A stretch of DNA of 61,178 bases from Elusimicrobiota bacterium (lineage in GTDB: Bacteria > Elusimicrobiota > Elusimicrobia > UBA1565 > UBA9628). How positions within the stretch are numbered: the stretch's first letter is position 1; the number at the start of each line of letters is the position of its first letter. The notes under the pieces were generated by a model that saw nothing but the letters and a program-made list of their open reading frames with translations, was not told the DNA's origin and searched no databases. Positions 27,626 to 38,439 of the stretch are shown in pieces. Made by a program: the position numbers and the translations under genes. The stretch spans positions 1 through 61,178 of the forward strand of contig JACQPG010000160.1 of the NCBI GenBank assembly GCA_016207665.1, in the 5' to 3' direction.

Positions 27626-27712
27626 GAATCTTCTCCTTGATTGAGCGAAAGGATTCTAGGAAAGGCGCGAGCGCGGTATATGAAGCGAAAGGCCCAGCGG
27701 AAAGAAATATTT

Positions 27713-27734
27713 AGGCCCAACGCCGATTGGGCCT
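27713..27734. other. Hairpin in divergent intergenic region
   Basis: AGGCCCAA and TTGGGCCT pair perfectly around CGCCGA between the genes starting at 27625 and 27777. No transcript obviously needs ending here, so it may be an operator. There is no T tract on the plus strand beyond TTTA. Confidence 0.35.
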
Positions 27735-27763
27735 TTAGGGAGCAAGGGCCTGCCTCAATAAGG

Positions 27764-27769
27764 TATATT
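27764..27769 (+). promoter_or_regulatory. -10 box 7 bases before a start codon
   Basis: TATATT ends 7 bases before the ATG at 27777, with no Shine-Dalgarno sequence between. The -35 match is poor. It fits the short-leader pattern seen at other genes. Confidence 0.45.
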
Positions 27770-27776
27770 GCGCTGT

Positions 27777-34749: not shown

Positions 34750-34944
34750 ATGGCGAAATTCAATCTTTCTCCCCAATTTATCATCCGTAACGGCAAACCT
34801 ACGGCAGTTGTCTTGGATATCCGAGACTACCGCAAGCTTCTTGAGACGCTAGAAGATCGCGAAGACCTCAGAGAACTCCGCTCCCTTAAACGCCGCAAGC
34901 TGCGCTTCCGTTCCTTCGAAGCCTATCTCGGCTCCAAACATTGA
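34750..34944 (+). CDS. Antitoxin, Phd/RelB-like
   Basis: 64 residues: KFNLSPQFIIRNGKPTAVVLDIRDYRKLLETLEDRED then a basic C-terminal tail (RSLKRRKLRFRSFEAYLGSKH). The GKPTAVVLDIRDYRKL segment matches the strand-helix element of Phd/YefM-type antitoxins, and the tail should block the toxin. The stop overlaps the toxin start in a TTGA, so both are made together. Confidence 0.8.
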   Translation: MAKFNLSPQFIIRNGKPTAVVLDIRDYRKLLETLEDREDLRELRSLKRRKLRFRSFEAYLGSKH

Positions 34945-35198
34945 AGTATCGCGTCCTTCTCGAACGCAACGCTGAGCGGGATCTTAATAATCTGCAGCCA
35001 TCAATCCGTCAGGACATCATCCGGAAAGTTCTTCATCTCCAAGACAATCCTCGACCCCAGGGCTGCAAAAAACTGGAAGGATCAGCTCATAATTGGCGGT
35101 TGCGCCATGGCGCTTACCGCATTCTTTACGCGATCGATGATTCGTCCAAGACCGTCTACGTATACCGGATCAAGCATCGCAAAGAAGCCTACCGGTAG
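34941..35198 (+). CDS. RelE/ParE-superfamily toxin
   Basis: 85 residues from a TTG at 34941. The pattern KYRVLLERNAERDLNNLQPSIRQDIIRKVLHL, then NPRPQGCKKLEG and the terminal WRLRHGAYRILYAIDDSSKTVYVYRIKHRKEAYR, is that of RelE mRNA interferases, with the late Arg, Lys and Tyr positions that act in catalysis. It is translationally coupled to the antitoxin. The rare start codon would keep toxin output below antitoxin output. Confidence 0.87.
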   Translation: MKYRVLLERNAERDLNNLQPSIRQDIIRKVLHLQDNPRPQGCKKLEGSAHNWRLRHGAYRILYAIDDSSKTVYVYRIKHRKEAYR

Positions 35199-36666: not shown

Positions 36667-37968
36667 TCAGCGTATCAAACGATCCGCGTCTACCATGCCG
36701 AAGCCCTGATCCGTGGCCTGGAGGCCCGGCAAGGGCCTGGCCGCCCGGCGCAATTGCCCGAGAACGCCGTCCGGGCCGTCGAGGCCGCGATAGCCCATGG
36801 ACACGACCAGAGCGGCCAGCCCGGTCACATGGGGCGCCGCCATGGAGGTGCCTGACATGGGCACCAGATCATCGCCGATGATGGTCGACAGTATGGACTT
36901 GCCCGGAGCGATGAACTTGACCTCGAGCCCGCGGCTGGAAAAATCCGCGATCTGATTGTCCCAGTCGCTGGCCGCCACCGCGATGGTCTCGGGGTAAGCC
37001 GCGGGATAACCCACCGAGCTGCCCGACTCGGGCTTGCCCGAGTTGCCGGCGGCCGCGACGATCACGACCCCCCGAGCCTTGGCGTATTTGACCGCCTGCT
37101 CCATGCTGTCGCTGGGAAAGGGGGCTCCCAAGCTCATATTGGCCACGTGCATTCCGTTGTTGGCGCACCAGATGACGCCCTTGATCACGTCGCTGAGCGT
37201 CCCGCTGCCCTCCGCGTCGAGCACCTTCACCGCGTAGAGCCGGGCCTTGGGCGCGACGCCCACCACGCCCCGGCCATCGCGAGCGGCCCCGATGGTCCCC
37301 GCGACATGCGTGCCATGCCCATTATCGTCCAGATAGCTCTCGGGCTTTTCCGAGTCCGAGATGGCGGAGAAGCCTCCATCGACGCGCCCCTGGAGATCCG
37401 AGTGATACCAATCGACTCCGGTATCGACTATCGCCACACGCACGCCGGCTCCCTCGGTCTTGTCCCACGCGGCCTGGGCCTTGAGTCGCGCCACTCCCCA
37501 GGGCAGCTCTCCGCGAAAAGCCATCCGGCTCACTTCGCGGCCGAGCCTCGGCCTCTCGAATTTCGGCAACCCGAGCTCCTTGAGGCTCGGGTTGGGAAAG
37601 GCCACGCCGGCATAGCCCGCGGCTCCTCCCTCGATCCATTTGATGCGGAAATCCTCCTCGACCGCAATCCCTTGGGCGGCCAAAGCCTGGATGCGCGCCT
37701 CTTGCCCCAAGTCGTGGCCTTGAGAAGTCTTCCTGACGGCTCCCGTTTCGCCCGGCAATTGCGCGACGACCGCGACGAATTCCTCATCGCTGTTGCCGTT
37801 GCTGATGATGCTTCCCAGCGGCTTGGCGTTGAGCTCCTGCAGGACTTTCTCGCGGGCGGCCAGCGTCGTTCCGGATTTGAAGCGGATGATCACCCTCCGT
37901 TCCGCAGCCGACGACGATGCTGCCAGGAACGCGAGGCACATCAGCGCCAACGACCATGCTCTCCCCAT
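36667..37968 (-). CDS. Secreted S8-family serine protease (subtilase)
   Basis: 433 residues. A signal peptide (1-22) and an inhibitor-like propeptide (about 23-115, RRVIIRFKSGTTLAAREKVLQEL) precede the catalytic domain. The triad is Asp182 (AIVDTGVDWYH), His218 (DDNGHGTHVAGT) and Ser375 (MSGTSMAAPH), with the oxyanion Asn near 309 (AAAGNSGKP). All are intact, so the enzyme should be active outside the cytoplasm. AGGGGG precedes the ATG at 37968. The propeptide resembles the N domain of the exported protein at 24595, which lacks a protease. Confidence 0.94.
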   Translation of the reverse strand: MGRAWSLALMCLAFLAASSSAAERRVIIRFKSGTTLAAREKVLQELNAKPLGSIISNGNSDEEFVAVVAQLPGETGAVRKTSQGHDLGQEARIQALAAQGIAVEEDFRIKWIEGGAAGYAGVAFPNPSLKELGLPKFERPRLGREVSRMAFRGELPWGVARLKAQAAWDKTEGAGVRVAIVDTGVDWYHSDLQGRVDGGFSAISDSEKPESYLDDNGHGTHVAGTIGAARDGRGVVGVAPKARLYAVKVLDAEGSGTLSDVIKGVIWCANNGMHVANMSLGAPFPSDSMEQAVKYAKARGVVIVAAAGNSGKPESGSSVGYPAAYPETIAVAASDWDNQIADFSSRGLEVKFIAPGKSILSTIIGDDLVPMSGTSMAAPHVTGLAALVVSMGYRGLDGPDGVLGQLRRAARPLPGLQATDQGFGMVDADRLIR

Positions 37969-38002
37969 GGTGCACCCCCTGGCCCGATGGCTCGGGCTGT
38001 TT

Positions 38003-38016
38003 CACTGCCGGCAGTG
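38003..38016. promoter_or_regulatory. 14-bp palindrome in the subtilase leader
   Basis: CACTGCCGGCAGTG is perfectly self-complementary and lies between a likely -10 box (TACACT, minus strand, just upstream) and the subtilase start at 37968. Its place downstream of the -10 box would suit a repressor. Confidence 0.4.
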
Positions 38017-38020
38017 TAAC

Positions 38021-38165
38021 AAAAGGCCTATTTATGCCATGGGTCAAAGGACCTATTTTTAAATAGGTCTTAAGACCTATGTCTTGGCCAAAGGTCCTAG
38101 GCCCAAGGATGCCGATGCTAGCATATTAATGGGTCAAAAGGCCTATATTATTTTTAGGTCTTGTG
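38021..38165. repeat. Cluster of repeated AGGNCCTAT-like palindromic words
   Basis: This AT-rich stretch carries AGGCCTAT, GGACCTAT, TAGGTCTT, AAGACCTAT, AAAGGTCCTAGG, GGCCTATA and TAGGTCTT within 145 bases. A unit of 31-32 bases occurs twice in direct orientation (38041-38071 and 38131-38162), beginning GGGTCAAA and ending TAGGTCTT. Nested palindromes include ATAGGTCTTAAGACCTAT (38063-38080) and ACCTATTT/AAATAGGT (38051-38068). It fills the gap between the divergent subtilase (start 37968) and the small gene at 38257, and may be a multi-site operator. Confidence 0.65.
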
Positions 38166-38256: not shown

Positions 38257-38439
38257 ATGAAACGCGCGCCGAGAAGGACCGACTCAAAAGCCAAGGCCGG
38301 CCGAAAGACCAAGGCGGAACGGGGTCGACCCATGGAACTCGACCCGAATTGGCACGAGTTGGAAGCTCAACACGACAGGATCAAGCACGACTGGGCTAGC
38401 CTCGCTGCGATGCTGGGCGTCACCCGCGATCGAGACTAG
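38257..38439 (+). CDS. Small basic protein of unknown function
   Basis: 60 residues, not recognised. The first 26 are very rich in Lys and Arg (KRAPRRTDSKAKAGRKTKAERGRP); the rest (LDPNWHELEAQHDRIKHDWASLAAMLGV) is acidic to neutral and helical. It could bind nucleic acid. A near-ideal promoter just upstream supports that it is expressed. It ends 7 bases before the convergent nuclease gene stop and faces the repeat cluster at its 5' side. Confidence 0.55.
   Translation: MKRAPRRTDSKAKAGRKTKAERGRPMELDPNWHELEAQHDRIKHDWASLAAMLGVTRDRD

What the first reader, a model, noticed from the sequence alone, without database searches (positions are those of the whole stretch)
38021..38165. Cluster of repeated AGGNCCTAT words between a subtilase and a small basic protein
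At least seven related 8-10 base words, two direct repeats of 31-32 bases, and nested palindromes fill 145 bases. The words mostly read GGGTCAAA-GG-CCTAT or its partner TAGGTCTT. This is far more ordered than nearby intergenic DNA and may be a multi-site operator or an unknown repeat family. The adjacent 38257 gene encodes a small very basic protein that could bind DNA.
Basis: seen in the sequence. Interest (0 to 1): 0.65.

Follow-up and report, generated by a model that had tools for sequence, protein, structure and literature searches.

The report
Class-wide operator array before secreted-protein genes
The repeated words form a degenerate array of short palindromic sites, about 7.8 bases apart, in the promoter of a secreted protease gene; the same kind of array sits before many exported-protein genes across the bacterial class Elusimicrobia, so it is very probably the binding platform of a widely shared, still undescribed gene switch.

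Summary
The word cluster is real and belongs to the promoter of the subtilase on the minus strand (36667-37968), not to the small basic ORF at 38257. It is one member of a family of arrays of a degenerate, near-palindromic 7-8 bp unit (AGGNCCT, A/T spacers) on a lattice of about 7.8 bp. In five sampled Elusimicrobiota genomes these arrays lie in non-convergent intergenic regions (70 of 540, against 3 of 98 convergent; a G/C-swapped control motif gives 6 and 2). The best sites lie mostly 40-120 bp upstream of start codons, preferentially of genes with signal peptides (odds ratio about 3.5). Twenty-four of 28 readable orthologs of the window's subtilase carry an array upstream; in one genus the GG..CC letters are conserved while the middle base drifts, up to a CATAAT-like -10 box. 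Arrays were found in families with a NarL/DosR-type response regulator carrying DosR's base-contact residues (K,K,N), and not in sampled class families without it, with exceptions and a phylogenetic confound. I conclude: a multi-site operator of a class-wide exported-protein regulon (well supported), read by that response regulator (inferred, about 40%). No published description was found. Binding and regulation are untested.

The parts
38021..38165 (-). Operator array: degenerate 7-8 bp near-palindromic units, placed upstream of the minus-strand subtilase
38023..38029 (.). unit AAGGCCT (promoter-proximal unit, next to the proposed -10)
38048..38054 (.). unit AGGACCT, preceded by GGGTCAA at 38041-38047
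38065..38071 (.). unit AGGTCTT
38072..38078 (.). unit AAGACCT (forms the perfect palindrome with the previous unit)
38092..38098 (.). unit AGGTCCT, preceded by GGCCAAA at 38086-38092
38099..38105 (.). unit AGGCCCA
38138..38144 (.). unit AAGGCCT, preceded by GGGTCAA at 38131-38137
38156..38162 (.). unit AGGTCTT (distal end)
38040..38071 (.). module copy 1 (32 nt) of a direct repeat; copy 2 is at 38130-38162 (26 of 33 aligned columns identical)
38130..38162 (.). module copy 2 (33 nt)
38013..38018 (-). proposed -10 (TACACT on the minus strand), placed by analogy with CATAAT in the orthologous promoters; inferred only
   Evidence: inference
37998..38021 (.). inverted repeat TGTTTCACTGCC/GGCAGTGTAACA between the array and the start codon, overlapping the proposed -10
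   Evidence: I3
36667..37968 (-). subtilase (Peptidase S8) with a signal peptide: the gene the array belongs to

Best explanation
The cluster is the operator region of the subtilase promoter: an array of degenerate near-palindromic half-sites (AGGNCCT with A/T between) repeating every ~7.8 bp, so that several copies of a dimeric regulator can sit side by side just upstream of, and partly overlapping, the promoter. The same arrays stand before many signal-peptide genes (proteases, NlpC/P60, very large secreted proteins of unknown function) across much of the class Elusimicrobia and so mark a shared exported-protein regulon. The most likely reader is a conserved NarL/DosR-type two-component response regulator (in this genome G000:C131:15664-16332 and the paralog G000:C40:3127-3793), which would bind on phosphorylation and switch the secreted proteins together; activation is thought more likely than repression, but this is open. 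Shown by computation: the array, its period, its upstream position, its conservation at orthologous genes, the signal-peptide association. Inferred: that a protein binds it, which protein, and the sign of regulation.
For: Intergenic GGNCC pairs peak at 7-8, 15-16, 22-24 and 30-31 bp in G000 and G002 and near 8, 16, 24 in G160 and G012, unlike CCNGG apart from a peak near 12 in G160; pooled period 7.8 bp out to ~55 bp. TAGGNCC is 4-10 times denser in intergenic than coding DNA; ATCCNGG is not enriched. Two-unit hits: 70 of 540 non-convergent against 3 of 98 convergent regions; control 6 and 2. Downstream gene with signal peptide: tandem regions 29/46 against 109/332 (p=1.3e-4), divergent 20/24 against 77/133 (p=0.02). 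Subtilase orthologs across the order: 24 of 28 score >=10.5, control 0 of 28. In genus g8 GG/CC are kept, the middle N varies, and the last unit abuts CATAAT. -10 boxes are stronger at array promoters (p=0.003). Regulator: orthologs in most genomes of array-bearing families; sampled families with it 77/696 regions with arrays, sampled class families without it 2/111 (p=9e-4); lattice lags 246:64 against 10:17. Its HTH (KTVKN) keeps DosR's base-contacting K179, K182, N183 (PMC5861037), and DosR's published weak motif RRGNCYWNNGNMM (PMC6448022) resembles the unit pair.
Against: No binding or expression data. The co-occurrence of regulator and array is confounded by phylogeny and has exceptions: G282 has real arrays but no clear ortholog (best 30% identity) although its sister species has a 71% one; G015 (79% complete) likewise scores on the pattern without an ortholog. 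Family f5 carries the regulator but was not sampled for phasing, and its pattern counts barely exceed control. Arrays upstream of the regulator gene occur for both paralogs here but not consistently in orthologs. An extended 7.8-bp lattice is longer than a normal DosR box. About a third of array-bearing tandem regions precede genes that the heuristic does not call exported. G160 has 3 convergent hits. Gene starts and signal peptides come from crude home-made callers.
Confidence: 0.62

Rival explanations
1. The arrays are operators of the same exported-protein regulon but are read by a different protein, for example a ribbon-helix-helix type regulator, whose dimers sit on tandem 8-bp palindromes as MetJ does on met boxes.
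For: MetJ binds a tandemly repeated 8-bp palindrome (title cited in PMC3274233), the same geometry as here. The co-occurring response regulator is only correlated.
Against: RHH_1 (PF01402) is absent from 9 of 11 tested class genomes, including G000, G002 and G053, which carry arrays. Other RHH families and other folds were not tested.
Confidence: 0.25
2. The array acts in RNA: transcribed as part of a 5' leader, its palindromes form alternative hairpins that control the secreted-protein mRNA.
For: The minus-strand leader folds better than shuffles (z=-2.8); words show a weak strand bias relative to the gene (49 to 31, p=0.06); a hairpin-like repeat lies near the start codon.
Against: Palindromic DNA sites raise folding scores by themselves. 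In the orthologous promoters the array lies upstream of the CATAAT box, and in G160 upstream of TATAAT-like boxes, so it would not be transcribed. Spacing follows a rigid lattice and the middle base drifts freely. The only Rfam match is far below its gathering score.
Confidence: 0.07
3. The arrays are dispersed or tandem repeat debris (REP/BIME-like elements, or a decayed heptamer microsatellite) without regulatory function.
For: They are short, palindromic, intergenic and multi-copy; IS200-like (RAYT-type) transposases occur in relatives; a 32/33-nt module is duplicated in the window.
Against: Copies share only a degenerate unit and a phase, not a sequence. TRF finds no tandem repeat. Near-absence from convergent regions, preference for exported genes, conserved placement at orthologous genes, and column conservation limited to GG..CC. 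The candidate REP word GCCTGGCAC is in only 4 of 73 array regions and in no sampled intergenic DNA of the f4 genomes that do have arrays.
Confidence: 0.05
4. The cluster is a local operator bound by the adjacent small basic protein at 38257.
For: The ORF is close by and its product is basic.
Against: No Pfam domain, not called as a gene, and arrays accompany the subtilase in dozens of genomes.
Confidence: 0.01

Closest known systems
DosR (DevR) boxes of mycobacteria and other NarL/LuxR-type response-regulator sites
   Same: Inverted GG-N-C type half-sites with an A/T middle; several sites per promoter; the candidate regulator is homologous to DosR (1.4e-31) and VraR (4e-37) and keeps the K/K/N base-contact triad (PMC5861037). 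DosR motif GGGACTTNNGNCCCT, weak form RRGNCYWNNGNMM (PMC6448022).
   Different: Here the half-sites run on as a lattice (7.8 bp, traceable to ~55 bp in pooled data) rather than as separate palindromes, and the genes encode exported proteins. Binding is not shown.
MetJ met boxes (tandem 8-bp palindromes, ribbon-helix-helix repressor)
   Same: Degenerate 8-bp palindromic units repeated in tandem in promoters.
   Different: Different sequence; RHH_1 proteins are not conserved in the array-bearing genomes.
NarL heptamers (own knowledge; papers located but not read)
   Same: Short half-sites in several copies and both orientations upstream of promoters.
   Different: Different consensus, no regular lattice.
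REP/BIME elements and cyanobacterial heptamer tandem repeats (own knowledge)
   Same: Short palindromic or heptameric intergenic repeats in many copies.
   Different: Those are near-identical copies without a tie to promoters of one gene class; here only a degenerate unit and its phase are kept.

Membership tests
DosR/NarL-type response-regulator operator | inverted half-sites resembling the DosR motif (GG-N-C / G-N-CC with A/T middle) | tested here: met
   core RGGNCCWWWGGNCCY and variants against RRGNCYWNNGNMM (PMC6448022); the resemblance is partial, spacing 7-9 rather than 7
DosR/NarL-type response-regulator operator | a cognate regulator with matching recognition residues is encoded in array-bearing genomes | tested here: met
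   NarL/DosR-type orthologs with KTVKN; exceptions G282 and G015
DosR/NarL-type response-regulator operator | phosphorylation-dependent binding of the regulator to the site | not testable with these tools
   needs EMSA or footprinting
DosR/NarL-type response-regulator operator | autoregulation (common but not defining for such regulators) | tested here: inconclusive
   arrays upstream of both paralogs in G000 but not consistently in orthologs
MetJ-like (ribbon-helix-helix) operator | tandem palindromes of about 8 bp | tested here: met
   period 7.8 bp
MetJ-like (ribbon-helix-helix) operator | a ribbon-helix-helix regulator shared by the genomes | tested here: not met
   PF01402 absent from 9 of 11 class genomes; other RHH families not tested
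REP/BIME or tandem repeat | near-identical dispersed or tandem copies | tested here: not met
   TRF none in the region; only unit and phase are shared
Structured RNA of a known family | Rfam match at gathering score | tested here: not met
   only mir-4041, 24.5 bits against 74 required

The most novel reading that the evidence does not exclude
A large part of the class Elusimicrobia controls its exported proteome with one master regulator that assembles as a helical row along promoter DNA, one protomer or dimer every ~7.8 bp (three quarters of a turn), on arrays of up to roughly 20 degenerate half-sites. Promoter strength would be set by array length and quality, an operator architecture not described for response regulators.
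Probability: 0.2. Interest if true: 0.8.

Novelty: new variant of a known kind. Interest (0 to 1): 0.62.

Why it matters
The literature searches here found no described regulon for this class of bacteria, which is known almost only from metagenomes. A sequence signature that marks the exported-protein genes, with a named candidate regulator, would let secreted enzymes of unknown function be found from their promoters. The long phased array is also an unusual operator design that could show how a regulator assembles on DNA.

Tried and rejected
Ribbon-helix-helix regulator: attractive from the 8-bp geometry, but PF01402 is not conserved. Autoregulation of the response regulator as identification: arrays upstream of both G000 paralogs but not in orthologs. 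Missing -35 as a sign of activator dependence: no difference from other promoters in a crude scan. Cyclic HMM from random starts: drifts to AT-rich or GC-rich stretches; only the seeded model gave the unit. Reversed patterns as controls over whole genomes were dominated by coding DNA, so intergenic comparisons were used instead. An 'any in-frame start' signal-peptide test was too permissive and was replaced. Pattern hits in G087 outside the class turned out to be a dispersed near-identical palindromic repeat, not arrays. The query was a shortened version of the regulator; one search repeated it full-length for the exceptions.

Full report
Observation. The 145-base cluster is present as described. 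Ten unit matches against a shuffle mean of 3.9 and a lattice-chain score that none of 2000 dinucleotide shuffles reaches make it more than chance, although a few other tiles of the GC-rich window come close on that bare score. The two long direct repeats are a 32/33-base module with 26 of 33 aligned columns identical and one 1-base gap. The sequence reads as a succession of degenerate 7-8 base units (GGCCTAT, GGGTCAAA, GGACCTAT, AGGTCTTA, AGACCTAT, GGCCAAA, GGTCCTA, GGCCCAA and so on). TRF sees no tandem repeat, because the units are alike only in GG-N-CC and in their phase.

A genome-wide family. A strict pattern found the same words in intergenic DNA elsewhere in the genome, often just before genes beginning with a signal peptide. 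The organism is a member of the Elusimicrobiota: best adenylosuccinate lyase matches are Elusimicrobia MAGs at 65-71% identity. In samples of about 350-400 kb from five genomes (G000, G002, G160, G012, G053) TAGGNCC is 4-10 times denser in intergenic than in coding DNA, while ATCCNGG is not enriched. The spacing of intergenic GGNCC peaks at multiples of 7-8 bases; CCNGG lacks this, apart from an unrelated peak near 12 in G160. Pooled over the five genomes the period is 7.8 bases and visible to about 55 bases.

Position and genes. Two-unit hits fall in 70 of 540 non-convergent but only 3 of 98 convergent intergenic regions (the three are in G160); the G/C-swapped control gives 6 and 2. In tandem regions the best site lies mostly 40-120 bases upstream of the start codon. 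Downstream genes are enriched in signal peptides: 29 of 46 against 109 of 332 in tandem regions (OR 3.5, p=1.3e-4) and 20 of 24 against 77 of 133 in divergent ones (p=0.02). Products include subtilases, a trypsin-like and an S13 peptidase, NlpC/P60, a DUF4953 metzincin-like protein, and many large proteins without a Pfam domain. Signal peptides were called by a heuristic of my own, so the true rate is uncertain.

Conservation at the window's own gene. Of 28 readable subtilase orthologs across the order (including the window's; most others at 47-59% protein identity), 24 have an upstream array at the threshold used and none reaches it with the control motif. In the genus g8 alignment the conserved letters are TAGG.CTTTGG.CCTA, then TAGG.CTT, then TGGGCC, at 24-base steps, ending at a CATAAT-like -10 box; the middle N varies between A, C, G and T in most units, and no -35 hexamer is conserved. 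By analogy the -10 of the window's subtilase would be TACACT at 38013-38018; this is inference. This footprint is the best evidence that the array is a set of protein-binding sites serving the subtilase.

Who reads it. The 8-base palindromic lattice recalls MetJ (PMC3274233), but RHH_1 proteins are missing from 9 of 11 class genomes tested. NarL/LuxR-type (GerE) regulators number 1-6 in ten class genomes and 0, 0, 0, 0, 1, 1 in six genomes of other classes. One group (DDQTLFREGIKDLLE ... CSVKTVKNHLN) is found in most genomes of families f1, f2, f4, f5, f8 and f25-f28, and is absent or clearly weaker in class families f6, f7, f9, f10 and outside the class; G323 of f6 has a 43% relative. Arrays: 77 of 696 regions in sampled genomes with the regulator against 2 of 111 in sampled families without it (p=9e-4); lattice lags 246:64 against 10:17 (p=7.5e-6); other phyla equal the control. 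Its closest solved relatives are VraR, DosR/DevR and NarL. The three residues by which DosR touches bases, K179, K182 and N183 (PMC5861037), are identical in the alignment, and the weak DosR motif RRGNCYWNNGNMM (PMC6448022) resembles the unit pair. These points make the regulator a good candidate, no more: the co-occurrence follows phylogeny, G282 and G015 are exceptions, autoregulation is not conserved, and many LuxR-type proteins share similar recognition helices (VraR has K, K, T).

Mechanism. Most likely a two-component response regulator occupies successive half-sites cooperatively and recruits or positions RNA polymerase at promoters of exported-protein genes; the last-unit to -10 distances cluster at 28-29 and 17-19 bases in a crude scan, whereas at the subtilase promoters the last unit lies within about 15 bases of the -10, which would also suit a repressor. 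The sign of regulation is therefore open. Four units of 7.8 bases are about three helical turns, so every fourth unit faces the same side.

Novelty. Searches of the open literature found no description of such arrays or of a regulon in this class; subscription journals were not searched. Multi-site operators and DosR-like regulators are known kinds; the long 7.8-base lattice and its use before exported-protein genes across much of a class appear to be new.

Noticed in passing
window 37998-38021: Inverted repeat TGTTTCACTGCC/GGCAGTGTAACA between the array and the subtilase start; genus g8 orthologs have GCTCCGGGTCCCCTCAACGGAGC (a possible hairpin) just before the ribosome-binding site.
   Followed up: partly
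window 34750-35198 (+): Phd/YefM-type antitoxin followed by a ParE/RelE-type toxin gene (Pfam PF02604, PF05016).
   Followed up: partly
L136:2294-3190; L050 near 2692; L034 10681 and 11610: IS200-like (RAYT-type) transposase genes and a short word GCCTGGCAC enriched in intergenic DNA of the GC-rich relatives: a possible REP/RAYT system, distinct from the arrays.
   Followed up: partly
L296, L298, L300, L302, L304 (genome G087, another class of the phylum): A dispersed near-identical palindromic repeat (...GGTCCATAGGACC.TATGGGTCCGAGGACT...) in several intergenic places.
   Followed up: no
G160 sample, L099-L118: Intergenic CCNGG pairs peak at a spacing of about 12 bases, possibly terminator hairpins.
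   Followed up: no
window 27626-27776: A weaker two-unit site (score 8.4) between two divergent genes that both encode signal-peptide proteins: a probable second, weaker array in the window.
   Followed up: partly
L268 upstream region: Repeated GTGTCAGACGATAAG-like words and their inverted copies upstream of a response regulator gene in G009.
   Followed up: no
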